In this document: positions 1-19,158 of the stretch, one piece after another
How positions within the stretch are numbered: position 1 is the first letter of the stretch
How the letters are laid out: every line of letters begins with the position of its first letter
Source of the DNA: Ectocarpus siliculosus
Lineage: Eukaryota > Sar > Phaeophyceae > Ectocarpales > Ectocarpaceae
Assembly (NCBI GenBank): GCA_000310025.1
Contig: FN648368.1
Coordinates: 1-44,976, forward strand
Length of the DNA stretch: 44,976 nt
Reading direction: 5' to 3'
Program-made: the position numbers and the translations under genes
Notes under the pieces: generated by a model
What the model saw: the letters and a program-made list of their open reading frames with translations, nothing else
Databases searched by the model: none
What the model was told of the DNA's origin: nothing

Positions 1-149
1 ACCAATCTACCGGGCTGTGTACGTTTTTCCATAATGTGTCAATGTTGGTGCCGGTATCAGGCCGGTATGGTACATGTCGTTCGTTACCTCCAAGCCGGCT
101 CAAAATGATCAAACCTTAGTCAAAACGTTTTCATGAGCCAACACATGGC

Positions 150-794
150 ATGCCGTTTTTTTGTACGTCATCTCTGTTCGTCCTCACAGAACTGGCTGTG
201 CGCTCAGGAGCATGCTTCGGGTCGGCGGTGCAGCGTACGAAAGCCCTTCAGATTCAGGTGGCTCAACATCAACCGGGGAAAAGCGCTGACACCAATGGCA
301 TCGTGGAAGAGTATGGCCTTCCGTTCGACATCCAACCGCTGCAGGAGGACCCCACGGCGACAGTGCGCAGAACGCACCCCTTGGGGAGCAATGCCGGGCC
401 TTACTACGGGCCTGACGCCCTGCACGACTGCAACCACGGGGATGACTGCCGCCAAAAGTACGGTGGGATAGACTCATGCGCCCAGCTCTCGGGGGTCAAC
501 CTCAACGCGCACGAGCAGAACCATGCGAAGAAGAAAAATTTTCTGCACATGTTGAATGTCATGAAATTTGACCGCTTTGCGTTCATGGTAACTCTGATCA
601 ACGAGACCGAGAATGAGGCAATAAACCGCAAATCGGTGGCAAACATGGTCAAGCGTGTTCGAGGCCATGGCTCGGAACGAGTAGAGATTTGCCAGGCTCA
701 GGTTTGGTTCTGCGGCAGATGCTTCTGCCAGAAGTCTCGAATGCGATCATTCGACCAGTTCGGCCGGGTCCGGCTGACCTTTGTTAAGCCATAG
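150..794 (+). CDS. Hypothetical protein fragment, possibly the C-terminus of a KDZ-type transposase
   Basis: An open frame of 214 codons ends at TAG 794. The first ~15 codons may be non-coding, because a good acceptor (cctcacag) lies near 188 and the frame from there reads as protein. Visible features are a Cys-rich patch (CNHGDDC near residues 93-99) followed by a helical stretch with NAHEQNHAKKKNFLHMLN and a Phe/Leu-rich segment ending in NETENEAIN. In KDZ (Kyakuja-Dileera-Zisupton) transposases the C-terminus carries a comparable pattern (N..EQ.N..L..M...F...L...N), so a decayed transposon fragment is my best guess. It could equally be an ordinary unknown gene whose 5' exons lie outside the window. 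No catalytic residues are visible. Confidence 0.3.
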   Translation: MPFFCTSSLFVLTELAVRSGACFGSAVQRTKALQIQVAQHQPGKSADTNGIVEEYGLPFDIQPLQEDPTATVRRTHPLGSNAGPYYGPDALHDCNHGDDCRQKYGGIDSCAQLSGVNLNAHEQNHAKKKNFLHMLNVMKFDRFAFMVTLINETENEAINRKSVANMVKRVRGHGSERVEICQAQVWFCGRCFCQKSRMRSFDQFGRVRLTFVKP

Positions 795-2294: not shown

Positions 2295-3715
2295 ATATTA
2301 AAGCTATGTTGTTTTCTTTCCGCGTTCACCCCTTCTAAACCAAAGCTTAACAAGCAGGCTATCGGCGAGACTATGTCGGCTCCTCTCTCCCCTCCTGCAA
2401 CTCCCCCTTCAACCAACTTCCCCTTCAACCTACATGAAGTCTACAAGTAAGTATGCTTCAGACAACGTGGCGACGACTCGCTCAAACCTGGTGTATAATA
2501 TCTCCTCAATATACCCTGCGCAAAAACTTTGGGTTTTTCTCGATAGTTTGACATGGGAAGGTGTTGAATCTAGTATCTGCCATTTGCAACCTACATGGGA
2601 GCAGATCATCTGCGATGTGTGCCTGTAAATGCAGCAGCCTACCCGCCTGGACCGATTTCCAAACATCAATTACTCCACGAAGAGAATGCGTGCATGAAAC
2701 GACTGTTTCAGAAGGCTCTTGACAGAGCGGCTTCAACGCCGCCGTTTCCGGCGCTGCCACGCTTCTGCTGTGAAAGAATGGAGCTTGGAAAATCGGTCGA
2801 GGGGGTGTGATATCTTGTGTCATACCTTGTTTAGGTGTAGCCTGAGCCGGAAATGGGTAGGCTTTCGACGCCTTATAGGGTGGCTGTGGGGGATTGGGGG
2901 AAACATGCTTCTTCAGACGTCGTATGGGTTGTTGTGCAGTGTTGTGCCTGGTTGGACGTTGGCAAGCTATCAATCTGGAAGCAGATGGCAGCGGCAGATC
3001 TGGATGCTGATGCGCCTACCTCTAGCGTTGCGGGGCAATCGGTTGTTTCTTTCGTGTACAGCCAGCGCAGAAAGCGGTTCCGGTCATCTCGAAGCTGTGC
3101 AAAGGCCTAGACCTACAGCACCTAGACTCAGCTAGATATTCCACTCGCTCTTCGTACAGCAGCAGTACACGCCCTACCGAACGGCCGGCAGCCCGGTAGC
3201 GCGCACATACAAATCGGTGCCCCCGACAACAGTCTACATTGTAGACTAATTGATTGCTTTCGGCGGTCCTGACATGTTTTTCTAGCAGCATTCTTCTCCT
3301 CCCCTACACACCATGAGTCCCCTGTGCGCGCAGGAACATACTCCACTGAACATACGAGCAGGCGGGCTCTGCAAGCCTGCACAGCTCGGGCTTCAGTGTG
3401 CAAGCTAGCAGAGCTGAGCTAGCCGAGTACCACCTCCAAACCGTCAAGAACCGCGTGCGCGCGCGCCCAAAAAGTACGGCATGCTTTCCGAACCTTCCGG
3501 AAACCCTACCCCCGAACCCCCTAAAGATCCTTTCGCACGATTGGTAATCCGACCTCCTACGGTTCTTGCGGCATAATAGCTGCCGGTTCGCAGAACTTGA
3601 GCGAGAGAGACCAGAGACTGGCGAGAGCGCACGATGGACGGGCGTATGTGCGCCGGTGCAGAGGCGTTTGTTGGTACCGGACGGCGCCATAGGGGAGTGA
3701 ACTTGGGAGGAAAAT
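2295..3715. other. Intergenic stretch upstream of the LRR gene
   Basis: There are several short overlapping frames on both strands (longest 155 codons, minus, 2506-2973) without family resemblance or a coherent splice structure. I see no gene here. The last few hundred bases (about 3400-3715) precede the LRR gene start and presumably contain its promoter, but no TATA box or other defined element is evident. Confidence 0.4.
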
Positions 3716-3931
3716 ATGGGTGTCGCCATGTCCCTAGAGGAGCTTGGTGCTCTAAGCGTTGTGGAACTCGCAGATTTAGCGCCCCCGGAGTACCGTCAGG
3801 CGTCCATCGATTTTGGCATCGATGGACACATGCTGACGAGTCTGCCTTTAGATCAACTCAGCGATGCCCTAGGTCGTGCAGGGGTGGACGATAAGCAGCA
3901 TTTGGTCTACCTGCTGGAGGAAATCGAAAAC
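3716..3931 (+). other. Exon 1 of the LRR gene: SAM-like domain
   Basis: Seventy-two codons. The segment IDGHMLTSLPLDQLSDALG followed by a Gly/Val turn and a Leu-rich helix matches the helix 3-5 pattern of sterile alpha motif domains (G..LL.L....L...G.....r..ll..i). It ends in phase 0 at a clean donor (AAC|gtgaga) that joins in frame to the acceptor at 4187-4188. Read without splicing, the frame stops at TGA 3944-3946 and would encode only a 76-residue peptide. SAM domains usually mediate oligomerisation, which would suit a receptor scaffold. Confidence 0.55.
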
Positions 3932-6900
3932 GTGAGAGAGCTGTGACGGATACCGACGAACCCGACAACGTCACACGGAACGAAGGCCCATCGGTTGCGT
4001 TGCTCATCGAACAGCGATCGTCACATGATATGTATTCGCACTCGCACACGCTAGGTGTGCAGTTGTGCAAAATGGTTTCAACACTCCTTTGAAAATACAG
4101 CCCTCCTTCCGATCTACGGAATCATAATTCGTAGCCCTCTTCAACTTGACGTGTTCTCGCCATCACCCCGATGTTTTCGATTAACCAGATTCGATGCCCG
4201 AGGATCGACCCAAGCAAGCTAGATCGCGAAAATCTTCGGGCGATTCTCGAAAGATCTGATTCCAATGACCGCGAAGAACTTTCGGGCAGGTCGGAGTGGA
4301 GCGGCGTTTCAGTGGACAGTGATGACAGAATCATCGTGCTCAACGTTACCAACAGGACCCTCTCGGGAGAGCTGCCAGCCGCGCTCTTCGAGATATCGAA
4401 CCTCGAGTACCTACACGCCACCTCGAACCTCTTCACCGGTGAGAGAGCCCATCAAATACGCCGGAAAAAACAAAATATCGCAGTAGGATATCCGTTTCGT
4501 TCTTTCGGGAAGGTGATGTATAGCAACCTAGACTGTTACTGTAGGTAAAGGGCTAGCAGTTGAAAGGCCCTGGGATTGGTTCATCCCTAGCGCACCGCAG
4601 ATATGCTCTCTTTCTGCCCCAGGCGTACACTGCAATCGGAAAGAGCAGACTTTGGTGCACGCTGCAGTTGATGACGCTGCTAATGGTCCCGACGCTGTCT
4701 CGAGGATCGCAAAGACAGCAGCGGCTTTAGGGGTAGGAGAAATTCGAGGAATGGGCCCCTTGATGCATGTGGAATAGTTCGCGTGTGGCTACAGGAGCTT
4801 TCGTTTGAAAGTCGATCACTACGATCACTACACCACACCCCCGCATCCTGTCTCAGACATATCCCGTGCTTGCCCTTCTCGTGCCTCTTCTTGGGGGGAA
4901 ATTTATGGATCTCTCCTTGTACAAAACTTCCCGTAGGCGCCATCCCCGACACCATCGGTGGTCTCAAACGGTTGGTCTCACTCAAGCTCGACCACAACAG
5001 CTTGACGGGACGAATACCGGGCTCGTTGACCCGCCTCACCAGTCTAACAGCTCTCGATTTTGCATGGAACAAGCTGACAGGAACAATCCCGATGAAGATC
5101 GGCACCATGACCTCCCTCCGCAAGCTTAGCCTAGGCGCAAACAAGGCAAGGCGCTGGATCTCGTCCCCGTTGCCGACAGCTTGAACAGGAGTAGGTTATT
5201 CTCATCGGCAAAGGGAGCAATAGTCTTCGTTCCTTCATAGTTCCGACTTCATCCCGGGCTACCTCTCGTATGTCCACCCATGTAGTAGGGCCGCAATTGA
5301 GGAACCCCACATGTAGCTGTTGGTCTCCCTCATACCGATACCTTCCGACTGTTAGGGCAACCACACGTAGCGTAGCCGGTGGATAACTTCGTCCCTCAAC
5401 GCCCCTCTGTCGTTGGTAACCTGCGCGGGGTAATATTAGCTGAACGGTGCAATCCCCAGAGAGCTGGCTTCGCTGCACTTCCTCGTCGAGCTGCGCTTAC
5501 GAGAGAACAGGCTTGCGGGAAAAATTCCACCGATGTTGGGGAACATGCAGTCACTCCAGGTACACGGATTCGAGCGAGTGCTCTATCGAACGTATACTCT
5601 CTCGACAACGCTCACACGACGACCAAGCTCGTTGAGCAGAATGACAATTGCAGAATCAATGACTCAAGGCATGCCAAGACCAACCTCTAGTCGCGGCCGT
5701 CCTACGTGCAGTAGCACCCGAAAAACAACGCAAACCGTCGAAGGCATCGTCGCTGGCCGACTCATACTGACACGCGTGCCCCTATGCAGGGTACGGTTTC
5801 AGCCGCAATGTCGCATTCACTCTCTTCTATGCTCTGCTAGCGACTCATGTCATTATCAACGATAAGTCCCCCAACCCCGGCGGGTGGTCAATGGTCTACC
5901 CGCTAAGGCATACAAAACATGAGTACGCCCCCCCCAGTAACGTCTGGTCGTCGGGAATACAGGTGCTCGACTTGACCTCGAATGTCCTTCAAGGTCATAT
6001 TCCCGAGAGCCTGGGTGAGATGACCAATCTTCGGGAGCTGTGGCTGGGGTACGTGTGTTCGTAAACTAACGGCTGGCATTCAGTCTTATAGCGATTTTAG
6101 TTTTGTTGGGCGTGCGCATTGTTTGGGTCGACCAAGTATCGTGCCTCTACTAGCAGGACTCCTGCGAAGGAGGAAGATTTGGTTAGACGTATCATGACCA
6201 TTGTTTGCTGGAAGACACTATCACCACCACCACCACCACCACCATCGCCGTCACAGCAGCAACAACAACACTAGCAGCAATGGCGACGTCGCGACCACCA
6301 CCAGGAAAACGAAATATCAAGCACTTACGCAATGCAACCACACGTAGCCGGTGGTACGGTGATTTGCTGCATGTGGTTGCACTTGCCTGGCTCTTGAACA
6401 TAGCGATGCTGAAGCAAATGCCTCGTTCCATCTACGTTTTGCTGTCGTCTCCGTTGTTTTACAGAGATAACCGAGTTGTCGGAGGTATTCCCGAGCCTCT
6501 GAGCAAATTGGAAGACCTGCAAAGTCTTGATTTGTCACGCAACAAGGTAAGTTTGTTCTCGACAATTGGGGAAAGCTGACTATGCAGGCGCTTTGTAATC
6601 AAAATGAATACGAGAAGGCAATTTGCAGAGCATGGCTTTGAGCATTCTCAATCTCGTGCAGCACTCGGAACACAAATTTTCCAGCTGCGAGACGATCCAG
6701 ATGTGATTGCTGCACACAACCTATAACACATTCAATGCCACAAACTCGTCACCCTCTTCGTCGGTTCGGCGCCAAGGACAACATACTGATGCCGTAAATA
6801 CCCGACCCTTTTTTCTAGCTCGCAGGGAAGATACACCCTCATGTTTTGAGCGCGCTCTCTTCATCTTTGGTGTACCTCAATCTCGGCCACAACGCCTTCG

Positions 6901-9900
6901 AAGGGGACCTCCCGGTTTCCCCCCTTTCTCCTCACTCTGCGGGAGGTAGGGTGCGGAGAGGATCAACCTCCGGCTCTCCATCTGAAGGACAAGGAAGGAG
7001 CAGCAGGAGGAGAAGGAGTGAGTCCGCGGCAGGGGTTGTGTCTGCTTCTCCACTCTCCTACTTGAACCTTTGCCACAACAAGTTCACTGGGCGTGTTTCC
7101 GAGGAAATAGGAAGCCTCACCTCTCTGGAGACCCTGGATTTGTCTCACAATAAGCTTGAAGGCGGCCTTCCACCCGACATTAGGAGCTGCATCTCCCTGA
7201 GGGTACTGTCCTTGTCTCGGTGTGGCCTCTCCGGGATCCTGGAAGGAGACGACGGAGGGGGGCTGGGAAGGCTGAGCTCGTTGGAAACTCTGCGACTCGA
7301 TGGAAACACTTTTCACGGGATTGTACCTGCGGCGCTCGGCAACTTGGCGCACCTCGAAGTTCTTCAGCTACAGGTTTGCTTGTGTACTGAGGTTTAGCTG
7401 TCACACAACAAACAGAGTAATCGCTGGGGTTCCATTGTTGGTGGCATAGAGGAAAGGCTTCACGCTCATTTTAACTATAGCCCAATATGACGACTCGTCT
7501 CTTCGTTATTCCTGCGGTACGCTGTTGCTTCCTTTTCGGTATTCTCCCAAGTGTAATTGTTTCAGCGGGTATCTGCCTTCGACGCTAGGGCAGCTGGATC
7601 GGTTGTGGGCACTCACAGTTCGGGACAACAATCTCTCGGGCAGGGTATGTACCCAGAATTGTTCAGCAGACGCTTTTCTTTTTCAAGAACACGGGGTGGA
7701 GCATGCCGTAGTAGACTGCAGTACTAGCGCTTCTTCCTGTTCCTTGGAAACTGGCCTTACAGTGGGCAGTCGGCACCCGGGAAAAGCGGACGCGCACGAG
7801 ATAAATTCTATAACATTTTCCTGTTTTGAATCGGTGTTCGTCGTCTTTGTTCACATTCACACGTCAAAAGCTGTGCTACTCGTGCTTTTCTTCTATAGAG
7901 TCTCTTGACTGCTCGAACTCAGAGCTGTCATAGCATCTCCAAGCTGTCGTAGGATCTCCAAATCCTGCGACCACACCTGTGGGCGTTCAATGTCAACATC
8001 CAACCGCATTCTCCCTCAGGTCCCCGAATCCCTGGGCTGCTTAACTGGACTGCGCTCTCTCCGCCTCGAGGAGAACCCCTCTCTCCGAGGTCCTATTCCC
8101 GACCAGCTGGCGTCCGGAGTGAATTGCAACGTTCGCGCGGACCAGCCAGTGCTGGACGACACGGAGGCGACCATGCTCGGTTCGAGATTGGACGAGTGGT
8201 TTCTGATGCCGCGGAAGGCACGTGGGAAAAGCTGAAAAGCTTAAACTACAGCAAAGGCTGCTAACAGACCTATCACCAACTTCACACTGCGACATTGGTA
8301 TTTTGGTCTCGGAGGGGAGCAGGATTTGGTTGGTGTTTCCAGAATATATGGCAATGAACCGAGGGATGCCGCGTTGTAGGAAAACGGGATGCCTTAGGAA
8401 AGTTGTTGACACTTGGACTTTTCGAAGAACAACCGATCGTGTCACTCACGACCAGGCTCCCTCTCGATTCAGAATGCGTATCTGTTTTCACTTTCATTGT
8501 CTTGTGGATGTCTTAACCTTTGCCGGCGCTCCAGCGGGAGACGCTGTTTGTGGGCCCACATCGTTTTGTTACACGATACCTTACGACCTTGGTACTGATG
8601 TTGTGCCTGACCTGACCCATGCCTCTCCTCCCTAATCCACCTGTTGCAGGCGTTCCAGAACTTGCAAGATTTTCCGGGCCACACCGCGGTGCGCCCTTGC
8701 TTGGTTCGTCATGCGACTACTGTAGTCCCGTATGAATGCCACGTCTTTACTGAAGCGAAGGCACGCAAGGTCGTCGTGCATCGAAAGGAGGTGGCTTTTT
8801 TTTCCCACTGCTGGGATCTGCCGCCTAACCAGGTGTGATTAAATGAGCGCAGAGAAAGGTGGGTGTTTGGGGTACTTGGCTACAAGATGCGATCTGCAGA
8901 GAATATGTATGTGTGTGGGGGGTATACTGGTGGGGGTTCCAAGTGCGGGGCCCCTCGTGAGAGCCCGCGCATGTGTTCATTGTGTCTGCGAGAGATACTG
9001 TGTATGCTGTGCTGGAAGAGCACGTGTGTATTAAGCAAGGCTATATATCATCTGCATGGGTCCTCTGGGCTAACATAGTCCCCAGACAGACATCATACCG
9101 TGGGTGGGCACGGTATCCTCCGTTGGTGGTCACGAGGGTATACAAACAGTGGGCATCTCGTGTATCATCGCCGCCACATATTTTACAGTCCCACAAAGCC
9201 AAGTCACTCATTCATCTACCCTCGTAAGGTTGTACACCGCACAAGACGTGAACCTTCCTACGCCACTTTACGCCTCTCGCCCCTCGGAAAAATACAGTGC
9301 CCGCCGAAACCAAAGCTTCTTGGTGGACCTCACCCGGACACGCCCGATCGCACCAAGCTGCGGCACATGAAAGCTTGCCTAGAGGATGCCCCATCGAGCG
9401 TAAAGTACGTCTGGGTAGACATGCTTTGTGTGCCTCTGGCGGACTCACGGAGGCGTAGAGCTGCTGGGCGATCGGTGCCCTTCTTCGTGCAAAAGTGAGG
9501 AATGAAACTGGCAATAAAAAAAACAACGAGTGAAAATCCGACAACATTTCCTGTGATGAAGCAAGCGTTGGTTGCAAATGGCAAGGTCTGCGGTCTATAT
9601 GTCTCGAGGATACATACCGATGAAGAACATGGTACCGGTATGTTCCGGTTTGGCTGTGTGGTGGGGCGCGCACAGGAGACCAAAAGGCGGGGGGTACCAC
9701 ATACTTTCCCCCAAGGTATGAGCTTGGAAGTCGCACCCCTTTCGTTCGACGAGTCCGACTGTGAGTAGTTCACCTCGAGATACCTACTTGACGTGCTTTT
9801 GGGTGGCTCCGTCAAAGCCGGGCAATTCTCGTGTACGTTGACACCAAATGATCACATCAATGGCGGTATGTCGACGACACGACCTCAACCATCTTCATAA

Positions 9901-11176
9901 CTATCCAACCCTATGCAGCCTGACGACGAATTACTGGGTAGAATCTAAAGGATTTATATCCCGCTATTTCGCTAATGTGCATATGGACACACGCATGTGT
10001 CGTTCATGGCTTTGCGAAAGCTCCGGGAGGTTCTACATCTTAGCCCACGACAGTGCCAGCCTCCAACGCCACAAGAAGCGCGGGTGGTGCCGCCTAGAGG
10101 CTCTCTGCGCTGCGTGCCCATACCAGCATTGCCAAGTCGAATCGGCATTCTCCGCGAAGGTAAACTTGTCCGGCCGTGCCTGGGGGTATGCTGCAGGAAC
10201 AACCTCCCTACTGAATTTGTATGTGTCCTATTTGCTGGATTGAAAGGAGATGGGCTGGTCTGATCTGCTGACAGTGCATAGGGCAACGAAGGCCACGAGA
10301 AAATCGCACATCCAATTTTCATAGCCGTCTCACAACACCCCGCACGGCCTTCTCGTTCTCGTGTTCCCGAAGCAGCCTGCACGGAAGTCGGCGACGGCAC
10401 GATATGTGTACGACGCAATTGAGTGCTACGTGAGCACATGGGACAATGGGGCGAGATACGAGGCACGGATAAAGAATGGTCAAGAACTGGGGGCAGCAGG
10501 GTTCCTCGGGAATCCTGTGACGGGTAAGGTAAGGCTAGGCTACGGGCGGTGGGAGCAGCCATCAGTGTCAAACTGCGGTGGGAGCTTGGCTGCGCTTCTA
10601 GCCCGGACACGGGCGAGTCTGCGGTGTCCGGAAAATTTCAACTCGGTATCGTTCGGTCCTCCCCTCCTTCCGAACGAGAAATCGCCGTGTTTCCTGTACC
10701 GCCCGTTGCTCGAAATAGGCTCTGAAATATCCTCCCACGCTCCCACGCTCCCACCCTCCGTGTCCGCGCAACCGTGAATGTGGAGCATTGAAGATCACGT
10801 CCAACGACTGTCGACGTTGCCGAGCCCCCACCCCTTCCAACGTTTCATTTGGTGTCTCAGAACCTAGTGTCGCTCGAAATCTCGTTCTCCACAGTTGAGT
10901 GACCCGACGGACCGCCAGTTCATCGCAGAGGCCGCGTTGGGGGCGATCAATGCGATGGAGATGTCCGGCCGAATGGACTCGGAGATGGTCAAGCCGTTGC
11001 GATTGACATGCAAAAGGATTCTCTACGGCTCGCAAGGCTGGGAGGGGCAGGGAGAAGACGTACAAAAGGCTCCGTCTCTGGCGTTGGAAGAGTCACGATC
11101 AGCTACTGCCGCTAGCAGCATAGGCGGCACCGTCAGCAGCAAAGGGGGGCTAGTTCTCCCCAGAATCGGTACATAG
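3716..11176 (+). CDS. SAM-like / LRR / HET-like multidomain receptor-type protein, 14 exons, 937 aa
   Basis: Exons: 3716-3931, 4189-4438, 4937-5145, 5440-5559, 5963-6048, 6465-6546, 6819-7373, 7552-7644, 8020-8217, 8650-8832, 9298-9494, 10021-10159, 10325-10528, 10895-11176 (stop TAG). All phases close and the sum is 2814 nt. Residues 1-72 form a SAM-like helical domain. Residues ~73-130 are an LRR N-terminal cap with SEWSGVSVDSD. About 130-580 are plant-type 23-24-residue LRRs (L..L.L..N.L.G.IP). About 604-776 carry FFSHCW, YVWVDMLCVP and GWCRLEA, spaced as in HET/TIR-like domains. The Ser/Gly-rich tail ends in VLPRIGT. No signal peptide or membrane span is seen, so it is probably intracellular. 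Two introns (5146-5439, 8218-8649) use GC donors. The start could also be the ATG at 3728. The role in pathogen recognition is inferred from architecture. Confidence 0.8.
5146..5439 (+). other. GC-AG intron 3 of the LRR gene
   Basis: The exon ends AACAAG and is followed by gcaagg; the intron ends taatattag before CTGAACGGT. Joining gives the LRR core GANK|LNGAIP in phase 0. No GT donor nearby restores the frame. GC donors with the AG|GCAAG context are the known minor variant. Confidence 0.75.
6222..6244. repeat. (CAC)n microsatellite in intron 5
   Basis: About seven to eight CAC units lie inside the LRR-gene intron 6049-6464, followed by a degenerate CAG/CAA-rich stretch to about 6280. Confidence 0.9.
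8650..10159 (+). other. HET / TIR-like effector domain exons 10-12
   Basis: Three exons (8650-8832, 9298-9494, 10021-10159) carry the conserved-looking blocks KEVAFFSHCWD (residues ~650-659), KYVWVDMLCVPLAD (~700-713) and SGRFYILAHD...RGWCRLEALC (731-760). Fungal HET domains have an (A/S)LSY.WG block, a (W)ID.LCI.Q block and a later GW..QE block in the same order. The match is by pattern only and no alignment could be run. In fungi HET domains are cell-death effectors; a similar role here is inference. Confidence 0.55.
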
Positions 11177-14291: not shown

Positions 14292-14727
14292 GCTGCTGTG
14301 ACCGTCTACCTATCCAACAGTATTCTGTACGAGGCGAGAGAGGCAGCACTCGGCAGCGAAAAGGGGCACTCTGGTGCAGACAGATGAGCGGGTGAGGTGA
14401 GGGGAGTTCAATCACACCCCGGAAGGCGGTACGGCGGTTACAGCTGTAGTCGCATTCCGCCACCAAACCACATGTATTGCGCCGTCCAACCAGACCTGGT
14501 CGCAGCCAATAACTGACTTGTTCGTCTTTTCAAAATTCACATGCTGTATCTCTTGCCTCCTTTTGATATCTAAAGTTAGGCGTACTGTAGTTTTGTGTAG
14601 TGCGGCGCCGATCCCACTCCCCGCCCTCTGCCCTGCTGTGCTGAAATCGTCGTCTAGATCAGCCTGTGTGGTAGACAGAGGGAGTGGGCTGCAATACACA
14701 GAAGTTACGCTACGCCGAGGCTTTCGA

Positions 14728-17700
14728 ATGCTCAACTCTAGGAAGGGGAACCTCCCTTGCTTCCAATGGGAGGTAGCGCGCTTTCAGCGAGCCCACCGGG
14801 AGAAGATGGCAGCCGTTACTGCACAGACTAACAATCGGCCAACCCCCAAGCAGCAGCTGCGCCGGAAGGATGGATTCCGCAACACCGACGCGAGGAGGCT
14901 CAAGGAAGTCGACGTCGAGCGCAGGAACGCTTTCCTCGTGGAGAAAATGGTCCATATTCATCGCACTGGGGGCTTCGAGCGGAGGTACGATCGTCACCAT
15001 GACAGTTGAGCGTGTGGTATATCCACTACGTACATTTTTTATCACATGATAAACCCACGCAGGGAGATGTAGACAAGACTACTTCAAATAGTATATCAAG
15101 CTCTGAACTGTTGTTGCTCGGAACGTTGCTCGGAACGTTTTTTCGAATCTTGGAAACTGGCTCCCTCTTGTATCTACAGTATGCTCCACAGTCTGACATG
15201 TTTTTTTTTTTTTGTACTTGTGCGATTCTTCGTTAGACCTATTTCAGTTCATTGGTTCTGGTGAGAATATCCGTGACGACGCTGTAGATCTTTCTACACA
15301 CGCATGGCTGACTCCTTGTCTTCTCTACACAGTAGAGGTCTCTTGGTATGACGTTTTTTTCTTAGGCGAAGCACGCTGCGGTCGTTCGTCACATGAAGCA
15401 CTCTGATGCCATATTAATAGTGTAGTACCACTGCGGAGTATAACAACATACAATATATATGTAGTAAACATGCAACGCGGCAAGAAACAGGTAAGCCAGA
15501 CAAATCGACATCCCAAGCCACAACACTATCAACGTATACGTACCACGGGAAGAAGAGTAGGTCGATTGAAGGAATGAATGTGCCCATTCCTGCATATATA
15601 TACCCAACCCCAGCCACCCCATGTGCGCGTGTGGATTTTCGAGGGATGTTCTCGGTGTGGTTTTTTCGACGATGCGTTGTGGTGAAATTTCGAGACAAAA
15701 TAATCCGTACCGCTCCGCGCTGCTGTCTACCTGGTACTGATTTGTAGGCTAGAAAAGTTCCAAGCAAACCCAACCGCAGGCCATGTTAGTCACTACATTT
15801 TTGTGGTGGTCTGTTCGCAACCAGTTCTTGCATCGTTTACCAACGAGCGATATGGTCGATATCGACCACATTCACCACATACACATCCGGGCGCTGTGGC
15901 ATCCTCCCTCCCCTTCTGCCCCGCCAATTTTCACTCACAAGTAGCGAAGGTAGGGCCGTGTGTTCATTTTTCATTATCGTCGCAAAATCTGTTGTTGTCG
16001 GTGGACAAGTGGTCAGCTCAGATGGAAGGCCCCCGAGTAGTGATAACCGGCACGCAGCAGCACCGTATGTAGAGGTGTTTGTTTGTGGCGCTTGGATATG
16101 AGTCCGGTCTGTGCATTCTCTGTGGGGGATACGCGTATGGGTGTGATAGGTAGTACGCGGTTGGGGTCCAAGTACGGTCCCCCCGAGAGAGCACAAGGTG
16201 GTGTGCTCCTGGCACTTGCCTGAGGGGGCTTACGTGTAGGATACCATTCGCCTGAGGTAGTGTGACCAGCTTGCCTGAGGGGCTTGCGTGTCGGTTAATA
16301 ATACATGGTCCTATTCTTCATCTGTTGTTCCTGGGATATCATAGTACCCAGTCTCGACACCAGCCGCTGAGCGCAGCAGAGCGCCCCGAACAGTTTTCTA
16401 CGACAGACACGTCTACGAAAAACAACGTTGTGACAAGGTAACCGACAACATGAAACTCGATCTATTGGCATCGATGTTCGTGCCGTAATTTTACTATCCA
16501 TACCTATGTAGGTCTCAACACGAGTATCAAGATTGCAAGGCGGCGTTACAGTTCGGCAAAACGAACGCCGGGATAACACGAGCGGTCCATGAACGAAGGC
16601 AAGCACGATCAGTTGTCCACGGCGGGAGGGTTGTCGGGCAGGCCTAGCGATAAGCTCTTTCTGTGCTGATACGTTTACCTTCCGAGCCGTACCGAGAACA
16701 TCGAGATTTCATGAACGTAGCCGATGACGAGTTATCTCCAATGCAACAAAGAGCGACGTGGTCTGAGTTTATTCATTCAAACATCTCTGAGTCTGTGTGC
16801 TTGGCGGACGGTGGCATCACCTGATTGTTTGGTGCAGCAGTTTCATCAGAGGTCGAAACAGAAAGGAGGTTGACTCAATGCCTTCATTGCTTAGAGCGTG
16901 ACCCACTATATTCAGCCCTTGGGGACCCCGCCCTATGATATACCCAAGAGTCCCCGCCGAATATGTGTCGGTTGCCTTGAAATAAAACACCTGAAGACAA
17001 AAAACTGCGTTCTACCGATCAAATCGCAGGGTTTCGCTGAGGAAGAAACAACAGGAGCATATTCGAAGGGAGAACGCGATACTTTTGACACGGCTGGTAA
17101 GGTTGATCCACGCATTCACCATTAGGCACAACACAACAGTGCGTGTCGCCGTACGTTGTCGCCAACATACTTAATGCGGTCCAGTACAATGCACCGGTAT
17201 TGGCCACCTTTCTCATGGCAGACAAAAACGCCATGGCAATTGTAGAGTTCAATGGTCTGCACAACGTACGGAGACAGTTGTATTTGGTGGCATTGCCAAA
17301 GACGATCGCGTTGCTGTGACTCATTGTACATCCGCAGGCAAGCCCGAAGCGTACCGCTTTAGACTTCAACAGGTTTGAGGCCGACTTCGCCAAAAGCCGC
17401 GAGCACCACCGCCTGGCCCAATGCGACCGCACGGTGGGACACACGGCAGTATTTTCGCATTGCTCAGGGTCTAACGACACCCCCCCCGGCACATCGGCAC
17501 CTCACCTTCAGTCAGACCATCGGTCAGGACGACCTCGGCCAGCGTCCGCAGGGCTGAGTTTAGGTCGCCAGGCCAAAGTTGGTGTTGGCAAACGTATGAG
17601 TGGCACCGGTCAGAACAACAGACAGCGGGGCAACAACAACACGGCTTGTGTCGGGAAAGCCGAGGGTAGTGCGGAAATGCCATCACGCATAGCTCTGCAC

Positions 17701-19158
17701 AGGCCACACTCAGCTTTGGGTTTGCGACGGGGCGACAAGCACCACGACCTTTTCAATGCTCGCGCCGCGGATCCCGGGTGGGGGAGCAACAGGGCAAGCT
17801 TGACCTCCCGCCCACCGTCGGCGCCGGAGAGGATTGAATGGGGAAGCTGGGGGGCTGGCACCGACCCCGTTTTCTCTGCTGCCGCCAGAAAAAGAAGACC
17901 GCCGCCGTCCCTGCGAAATTGGTCCGGCGGTCGAGGCACGATGGGGTGGGGGCGCCTGTCGAGGAGGCCAGTAGGACCGGCCCACAAAGTACGCCAGCAG
18001 GTACATACCAAAGTATCAAGCGATCGCGATGATGGTCACGACGGAGAAAAGGTGTCGGCGGAGGAAAGTACGACAGGTGGATCCCAGTTCGACGAAAGCC
18101 GGGGTGGTGGTCGAGGTGGCCGTCTCTCGTCTCTCGGGCACACACTGCTCGTGGAAGCGAAGGTTCTAATTGGCGGTAGAAGAAACGCCGGAACTTCAAA
18201 CAGCTCTGAAGAAGCAGGAGGAAGTTGCATGAAGGTGAATCTAAGGTTTCTGAGCTTGGATGGGCTCATCAGGTTCCATGAAGGCGTCAGAAAGACTCTC
18301 CAAGGATTCGTGGTCGAGGCCACCCTCACCACCCCTCATCGAACCCATAACAAAGGTGGTGTCGCGGCTAAAAGCGACGGCACGGTAGGTGGTAGCAGCG
18401 TCGAGGTTGCATCTACATCTGTTGCCGTGCCGATGGTACAAGAATACTTGAAGAACGCAGAAGGAACACCAGCAGCAGGAGATGAGGCTGTAAGGTCGCC
18501 CTCAGCTCTTACCTCGTTCCGTGAGGCATGCCCCTTGGACGAGCGGGGGAACTACCCTGAGATCAACGAGCTGTTGGGGCAAGGTGAACAGCGCGATCTT
18601 TTTCAAACCCTGCTCGGAAGTTGTCGTGTCATCACACCACCAGCAGGCGGGGCTGACCGCATCATTGGCGTGGAGCTGCTGCAGGTAAACGCCGGGCTCA
18701 AGCTTGGGATATCTGTGACTACCGCCGACGCCACGCTTCTCGAGGCAAGAACACATGATCGCCCCAAACCTCCTAGTCCTCAGCCCTCGCATCGACGCCC
18801 AGAAGCGACGGAAACGTACGGAAGTAGCTCCTCACCGACCTCTGGCTTGATGGCTGACACTGGACGGTCAACAGCTGGAGGGGTGGTTGGGAGCTCGCCT
18901 ACCGGGCAACACACTGGGGGTGGTGGGTCTCACGCACGTACACATGGGGACTTTGGCGAAGGTGGCGGTGAAGGCCGTGGGAGGAAGCCGTCTATTCACA
19001 TACGGATGCCTACGGCGACGCGTCCGCCGAGCACCCCGAGGACGGGCGCCGAAGACGTATCAGAGAGTGGCGGCCGGGAAGAAAACCAGGATGACGGCGA
19101 CAACGACTACGACGACGAAGATGAAGATGAAGATGGAGATGAATCAGAAAGTTGTTGA
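14728..19158 (+). CDS. CFAP97/Hemingway-like ciliary protein with a long disordered C-terminus
   Basis: Proposed exons are 14728-14984 (donor AG|gtacga, phase 2) and 17343-19158 (acceptor gcaag|C), together 2073 nt and 690 residues. Exon 1 contains HREKMAAVTAQTNNRPTPK, then RRLKEVDVERRNAFLVEKMV. This matches the CFAP97 pattern of a P.....P segment followed by a helix R..EIE.EN..LL.KM..I. Exon 2 begins ALDFNRFEADFAKSREHHRL, like the W/F..D(F/Y) helix later in that family. The rest (~550 aa) is low complexity with RPRPASAG, RPPSAPER and a C-terminal Asp/Glu run. CFAP97 relatives act in sperm/flagellar axonemes, which fits an alga with flagellate zoids. The 2.4-kb intron may hide another exon (see 17140-17265). 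The downstream frame alone (from 17338) is open for 606 codons. Confidence 0.5.
15114..15137. repeat. Two perfect tandem copies of a 12-mer
   Basis: TTGCTCGGAACG occurs twice in a row, followed by a T run. Confidence 0.9.
16214..16293. repeat. Direct repeat of a ~24-bp motif, ~57-bp spacing
   Basis: CTTGCCTGAGGGGGCTTACG near 16214 recurs as CTTGCCTGAGGGGCTTGCG near 16271. A shorter relative, CGCCTGAGGTAG, lies between them. Confidence 0.7.
17140..17265 (+). other. Candidate phase-0 exon, possibly upstream of the 17338-19158 frame
   Basis: Between acceptor acaacag (to 17139) and donor CACAAC|gtacgg lie 42 open codons reading VVANILNAVQYNAPVLATFL and KNAMAIVEFNGLHN, which resemble an ARM-repeat helix pair. 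Splicing to the acceptor ccgcag before 17338 also keeps frame. It is incompatible in phase with exon 14728-14984, so either it belongs to a different transcript or it is a chance open stretch. The minus strand is open here too. Confidence 0.3.

What the first reader, a model, noticed from the sequence alone, without database searches (positions are those of the whole stretch)
3716..11176. SAM-like + LRR + HET-like receptor architecture in a brown-algal-type gene
The spliced model joins an oligomerisation-type N-terminus, a ligand-binding LRR array and a C-terminal domain with FFSHCW, VWVDMLCVP and GWCRLEA blocks in HET/TIR-like order, with no NB-ARC or ROCO module and no membrane span. Known brown-algal candidate receptors are LRR-ROCO and NB-ARC-TPR proteins. 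A direct LRR to HET-like fusion would be a different, perhaps undescribed, immune or self-recognition design.
Basis: partly seen in the sequence, partly recalled or inferred. Interest (0 to 1): 0.8.

Follow-up and report, generated by a model that had tools for sequence, protein, structure and literature searches.

The report
SAM-LRR-HET/TIR-like receptor gene in alga
A probable algal gene joins a self-assembly (SAM-like) module, a leucine-rich sensing array and a cell-death-type HET/TIR-like domain that keeps the position of a known catalytic glutamate, a layout that works on paper like the neuron-death enzyme SARM1 but has not been shown to be expressed or active.

Summary
LRRs are certain (Pfam E 5.7e-42). 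The C-terminal domain is most likely HET-like: Pfam HET is its only hit, E 0.0023 on the trimmed domain, below the curated cut-off. A bacterial HET protein aligns around WVDxLCVP with a score reached by 1 of 2,000 shuffles; a joint alignment pairs all three blocks. Glu756 of GWCRLEA falls in a column that is Glu in 24 of 24 correctly read bacterial TIR domains, the TIR NADase column. A TIR-only profile does not separate it clearly (14 of 1,000 shuffles as high). Exon 1 has no Pfam match; its predicted fold matches SAM domains best, without significance. No NB-ARC, ROCO or membrane span was found. HET domains in Ectocarpus and their TIR kinship are published (PMC4986451); my searches listed no SAM-LRR-HET protein. 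Best reading: a cytosolic LRR sensor that clusters a HET/TIR-like effector through SAM, by analogy with SARM1. Fusion, expression and activity are inferred; the weakest joint is the exon 9-10 GC-AG splice.

The parts
3716..3931 (+). Exon 1, aa 1-72: SAM-like helical domain, start ATG at 3716
   Evidence: In-frame stop six codons before the ATG, at 3698-3700. AF2 single-sequence model pLDDT 76, six short helices; top Foldseek rows are SAM domains but E >= 0.67; VIA Z up to 6.4 to Shank SAM. No Pfam match.
4189..8118 (+). Exons 2-8 (4189-4438, 4937-5145, 5440-5559, 5963-6048, 6465-6546, 6819-7373, 7552-7644) and the start of exon 9 (8020-8217): about 17 plant-type LRRs, aa ~123-565
   Evidence: Pfam LRR_1 E 5.7e-42, LRR_8 7.9e-41; 12 regular repeats by pattern, about five degenerate ones by eye
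8119..8721 (+). Linker, aa ~571-627, crossing the GC-AG intron 8218-8649 that joins the LRR to the HET-like part
   Evidence: Exon 9 tail scores 0.27 bits per codon in frame with exon 9 left out of training, other frames -0.17 and 0.04; donor GCACGT; the exon 10 open frame has no Met
8722..10152 (+). HET/TIR-like domain, aa 628-773, in exons 10-12 (8650-8832, 9298-9494, 10021-10159)
   Evidence: Pfam HET E 0.0023, 18.7 bits against cut-off 22.5; alignment to bacterial HET L030; coordinates
10082..10102 (+). GWCRLEA: Cys753 (10088-10090) and candidate catalytic Glu756 (10097-10099)
   Evidence: Column is Glu in 24 of 24 correctly read TIR rows and in the bacterial HET; coordinates
10153..11176 (+). 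C-terminal tail, aa 774-937: rest of exon 12, exon 13 (10325-10528), exon 14 (10895-11176), stop at 11174-11176
   Evidence: One chance-level Pfam row, DUF2095 E 0.17

Best explanation
It is an open, probably intact protein-coding gene for a probably cytosolic protein of order SAM-like, LRR, HET/TIR-like. Most likely the LRR array senses a ligand or a host protein and keeps the effector domain quiet; the SAM-like domain brings several copies together; and on activation the clustered HET/TIR-like domains signal, probably by NAD+ cleavage through Glu756, leading to cell death or a defence response. Shown here: the open 14-exon model, the LRRs, the HET-like block order and the glutamate position. 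Inferred: the fusion transcript, SAM assembly, ligand sensing, autoinhibition, NADase activity and the defence role.
For: Model and LRR. HET: only Pfam hit of the trimmed domain, E 0.0023, against a best E of 0.14 among nine controls (reverse and eight shuffles). Smith-Waterman 61 to a bacterial HET over 56 residues around VWVDMLCVP, 1 of 2,000 shuffles as high. In a joint alignment the S and W of block 1, the D of block 2 and the E of block 3 share columns with the HET protein, and Glu756's column is Glu in 24 of 24 TIR rows; AbTIR reads WTNYE against that part of a TIR profile. SAM-like fold: with SARM1 SAM among the rows. Literature: SARM1's SAM domains form an octamer and its TIRs act when brought together (PMC7688312, passages); [quoted passage not shown] HET keeps the functionally important glutamate (PMC9153377, passages).
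Against: HET stays under Pfam's curated cut-off, and its E-value improved only as I trimmed the query (0.055, 0.014, 0.0023). TIR-only profile: 1.2 bits, 14 of 1,000 shuffles as high. The pairwise alignment with the bacterial HET covers neither FFSHCW nor GWCRLEA; with looser gaps 3 of 2,000 shuffles reach its score. SAM has no sequence match; phmmer prefers a response regulator at E 0.05, and Z 6.4 for a small helical bundle may be only a common arrangement. Exons 8, 10 and 11 score negative on codon use. The LRR-HET join uses a GC donor. No transcript, orthologue or selection evidence. The enzymatic activity of HET was described as still to be established in PMC10197012 (passages).
Confidence: 0.5

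Rival explanations
1. The protein is a scaffold, not an enzyme: LRR and SAM-like parts bind partners, and the HET-like domain recruits other proteins by homotypic contacts, as proposed for fungal HET domains.
For: Dyrka et al. propose recruitment of HET proteins (PMC4986451 section 16); not all TIRs have the glutamate or hydrolyse NAD+ (PMC9153377 passage); TIR-only profile similarity is weak.
Against: Glu756 is kept in the catalytic column; searches found no second HET-like or TIR_2 domain in the genome as a partner, though they can miss divergent or exon-split copies.
Confidence: 0.25
2. Two genes, not one: an LRR protein ending at the in-frame TGA 8233-8235 and a separate HET-like gene downstream.
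For: The joining intron has a GC donor (GCACGT) and exon 9 reads on for only five codons to a stop.
Against: Exon 10's open frame has no Met, so a second gene needs a further 5' exon; exon 9's tail looks coding up to the donor (0.27 bits per codon); another GC donor, after exon 3, is used to keep the LRR register (by eye), so such sites seem to occur in this gene; by eye, a GT donor in exon 9 (GGA|GTGAAT) would also join in frame.
Confidence: 0.17
3. The C-terminal domain is an unrelated fold and the HET/TIR blocks are coincidence.
For: HET is below cut-off; no PDB sequence match to a TIR; the isolated exon 11 model is poor, pLDDT 58.5.
Against: exon 11's low-confidence helix-strand-strand-helix order would fit the middle of a TIR fold.
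Confidence: 0.08

Closest known systems
SARM1 / TIR-1 (ARM-SAM-SAM-TIR)
   Same: Repeat solenoid, SAM-type oligomerisation module and C-terminal TIR-superfamily domain with the glutamate position, no NB-ARC
   Different: LRR in place of ARM, one SAM-like domain at the N-terminus instead of two in the middle, HET-like rather than canonical TIR
Fungal HET-domain proteins and HET-NACHT-WD40 NLRs (HET-E)
   Same: HET-like block order FFSHCW / VWVDMLCVP / GWCRLE
   Different: Domain is C-terminal, no NACHT, LRR instead of WD/ANK/TPR; no LRR motifs were found in fungal NLRs (PMC4986451 abstract)
Ectocarpus siliculosus HET-annotated protein gi 298709304 (Dyrka et al. 2014, Fig. 6 legend)
   Same: HET-like domain in a brown alga, aligned there with TIRs; it might even be the orthologue
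   Different: Its sequence and other domains could not be read here, so this is untested
Plant TIR-NB-LRR receptors
   Same: LRR plus TIR-superfamily domain; a cysteine neighbouring the glutamate matters for a second activity of plant TIRs (PMC9153377), and Cys753 sits three before Glu756 (that the two cysteines correspond is my recollection of the plant WCxxE motif)
   Different: No NB-ARC, reversed domain order, SAM-like module
Brown-algal LRR-ROCO and NB-ARC-TPR candidate receptors
   Same: Repeat-array candidate receptors; LRR shared with ROCO
   Different: No ROC-COR or NB-ARC match; exons are not shuffled 72-bp phase-2 LRR cassettes

Membership tests
HET domain (PF06985) | Score over Pfam's curated cut-off (22.5 bits) | tested here: not met
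   18.7 bits on the trimmed domain, 16.2 on the C-terminal part and 14.2 on the whole protein
HET domain (PF06985) | Three conserved blocks in order, as in a protein over the cut-off | tested here: met
   S and W of block 1, D of block 2 and E of block 3 share columns with bacterial HET L030 (44.3 bits) in a joint MAFFT alignment; the pairwise local alignment covers the middle block only
HET domain (PF06985) | Triggers cell death or incompatibility | not testable with these tools
   Needs an expression assay
TIR domain | Significant profile match | tested here: inconclusive
   Own profile of 24 bacterial TIRs: 1.2 bits, 14 of 1,000 shuffles as high; no Pfam TIR hit
TIR domain | Catalytic glutamate position kept | tested here: met
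   Glu in 24 of 24 TIR rows, in HET and in this protein; one row misread on the wrong strand, L055, was in the alignment but left out of the count; W at the start of the motif in 13 of 24
SAM domain | Sequence family match | tested here: not met
   No Pfam match up to E 10
SAM domain | SAM helical fold | tested here: inconclusive
   Best structural rows are SAM domains, top Z 6.4, rmsd 2.4 over 60 residues, but Foldseek E >= 0.67 and the model rests on one sequence, pLDDT 76
LRR protein | Tandem LRR motifs over cut-off | tested here: met
   LRR_1 133.1 bits, LRR_8 138.1 bits
SARM1 | ARM repeats and tandem SAM before a TIR | tested here: not met
   LRR and no ARM match; a single N-terminal SAM-like exon
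NLR / NB-ARC receptor | NB-ARC or NACHT nucleotide-binding module | tested here: not met
   No such Pfam match in the 937 aa up to E 1
Brown-algal LRR-ROCO | ROC-COR module and 72-bp phase-2 LRR exons | tested here: not met
   No ROC/COR match; LRR exon lengths 82 to 555 bp, mixed phases

The most novel reading that the evidence does not exclude
An alga has independently assembled a SARM1-type machine: a SAM-clustered, LRR-gated HET/TIR NADase in one chain, with no nucleotide-binding switch. This would be a receptor-effector class outside NLRs, joining LRR sensing directly to a HET-type death domain.
Probability: 0.25. Interest if true: 0.8.

Novelty: new variant of a known kind. Interest (0 to 1): 0.55.

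Why it matters
If the fusion is expressed and active, it shows that HET/TIR cell-death domains can be wired straight to an LRR array and a SAM assembler without an NB-ARC or NACHT switch. It would give brown algae, whose pathogen sensors are so far candidates, one gene with a directly testable enzymatic read-out (NAD+ loss, E756A). It would also help settle whether HET domains are NADases.

Tried and rejected
Paralogue search: the C-terminal 299 aa found 5 places, all exons of this gene; the SAM exon found only itself. PF06985 in the own genome gave none, but its control rang in 0 of 14 genomes, so it is uninformative. The GWCRLE DNA pattern gave 11 hits against 9 for the reversed control. The 2-kb neighbourhoods of all ten other hits and 7-kb ones of five held no WVD-type block; a few loose FFSY/FFSH-like strings turned up in four of these loci (L016, L017, L020, L021) and were judged chance. 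The WVDxxCVP-type pattern gave 2 hits (control 1), the other judged a chance frame by eye. The best LRR relative outside the window, C8:339275 (37% identity), showed none of the three blocks in open segments of 45 aa or more over 9.9 kb, so LRR similarity alone does not mark a family of such receptors; a SAM-like exon was not looked for there.

Relatives elsewhere: none confirmed by tblastn in viral contigs (12 pattern stretches) or genome contigs (93 stretches), and no match in plasmids up to E 10. PF06985 in Accumulibacter genomes: 0 of 5; in 399 genomes of the order of one of them: 1. For the C-terminal part PADLOC and PHROGs gave none and NCBIfam one chance-level row at E 0.15. Exon 11 fold: poor.

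Literature: the listings (titles and abstract starts; some lists capped at 12 to 20 of up to 325) named no SAM-LRR-HET or LRR-HET protein in algae. The library lacks most subscription papers, and Zambounis 2012 is not held. The TIR survey PMC7075850 does not contain the word HET (term search). Passages of PMC6652019 gave nothing on algal HET proteins.
Full report
Observation. I re-spliced the region independently. Eleven introns are GT-AG and two GC-AG. The alternative long exon 12 is in frame, but its extra part is unlike the coding exons (-0.44 bits per codon). Codon scores are positive in the model's frame for 11 of 14 exons; exons 8, 10 and 11 are negative, and the sample is small.

LRR part. 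Pfam scores are far over the cut-off. Twelve repeats of the plant-type form LxLxxNxLxGxIP were matched by pattern, most at 24-residue steps, and about five more can be seen by eye. Introns cut the repeats at different places and phases, with exon lengths from 82 to 555 bp, unlike the 72-bp phase-2 LRR exons reported for brown-algal ROCO genes (PMC11378527, passages).

N-terminus. No sequence family matches exon 1, and phmmer against the PDB gives the response regulator DesR at E 0.05. The AlphaFold model of the exon, from one sequence, has pLDDT 76 and six short helices; the other four models score 45 to 65. The best structural matches are SAM domains of Shank, L3MBTL3 and Polyhomeotic (Z 6.4, 6.3, 6.1), with SARM1 SAM at 5.4, but Foldseek E-values are 0.67 or more. 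I call it SAM-like.

C-terminus. Pfam HET is the only non-LRR family found in the protein, at E 0.055 in the whole, 0.014 in the last 366 aa and 0.0023 in the 146-aa domain, under the cut-off each time. Of nine control sequences two had any hit, the better at 0.14. One HET gene over the cut-off was found in 399 bacterial genomes. Its local alignment with this domain scores 61, reached by 1 of 2,000 shuffles; it spans 56 residues including WVD-LCVP in both, but not the first or third block. With looser gap costs 3 of 2,000 shuffles reached the score, and that alignment did not pair the first block. A joint MAFFT alignment with 25 bacterial TIR pieces (one misread) places the S and W of FFSHCW, the D of VWVD and the E of GWCRLE in the same columns as the HET protein. 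The last column is Glu in 24 of 24 correctly read TIR rows. A profile of nine of these TIRs matches AbTIR, SARM1, RUN1 and others, and AbTIR reads WTNYE at that place; the SARM1 and RUN1 alignments were not printed. That a conserved glutamate is catalytic in SARM1 (E642) and putatively in RUN1 (E100) is from PMC7282519 (passages); that it is the same column rests on these alignments and on recollection. A TIR-only profile does not recognise this domain convincingly: 1.2 bits, 14 of 1,000 shuffles as high.

Is it one gene? The joint between LRR and HET is intron 8218-8649 with a GC donor. In favour of a fusion: exon 9 stays coding-like to the donor (0.27 bits per codon with exon 9 left out of training), exon 10's open frame has no Met, and another GC donor, after exon 3, keeps the LRR register. 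Against: a stop lies five codons beyond the donor, exon 10 itself scores negative, and there is no transcript.

Genome context. The window is the first 45 kb of contig C51 in a 189-Mb, 492-contig genome. The HET-like and SAM-like parts appear single-copy at the sensitivity used. No TIR_2 domain rang in the genome while the control rang in 4 of 14. NB-ARC gave 32 rows, none on C51 (its control rang in 11 of 14, over the cut-off in 3).

Mechanism. In SARM1, SAM domains hold an octamer and the repeat domain keeps the TIRs apart until activation (PMC7688312, passages). Fusing SARM1 SAM to plant TIRs enables NADase activity and cell death (PMC7282519, passages). The present protein seems to have the same three jobs in one chain with LRR in place of ARM. 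I therefore favour a SAM-clustered, LRR-controlled HET/TIR-like effector, probably an NADase (about 0.5 for the whole reading). Fungal HET domains are sufficient for cell death, but their enzymatic activity was described as still to be established (PMC10197012, passages).

Novelty. HET domains in stramenopiles, including one Ectocarpus protein, and their relation to TIR were published in 2014 (PMC4986451, section 16 read). My searches (listings only, some capped) named no SAM-LRR-HET protein. I file this as a new variant of a known kind.

Noticed in passing
window 14401-15006 (+): Open frame with a sub-threshold match to Hmw_CFAP97 (E 0.00046, 21.3 bits against 25.6), a ciliary protein family; plausible exon of a flagellar gene.
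   Followed up: partly
window 17320-19158 (+): Longest stop-to-stop frame of the window, 612 aa, with no Pfam match at E <= 0.01.
   Followed up: partly
window 120-791 (+): 224-aa open frame near the contig's first base with no Pfam match at E <= 0.01; may be a piece of a mobile element, by eye only.
   Followed up: partly
L059 3210-6396 (G000:C8, about 339.2-342.4 kb): Another plant-type LRR gene, the best LRR relative outside the window (37%), without the HET-like blocks in the 9.9 kb read.
   Followed up: partly
L030 (bacterial genome G159, C36): The bacterial HET protein lies beside a frame beginning ARRVFFSF that looks TIR-like by eye and a further frame; possibly a small defence cluster.
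   Followed up: no
G000 contigs C21, C2, C6: Groups of NB-ARC matches, several in long open frames.
   Followed up: no
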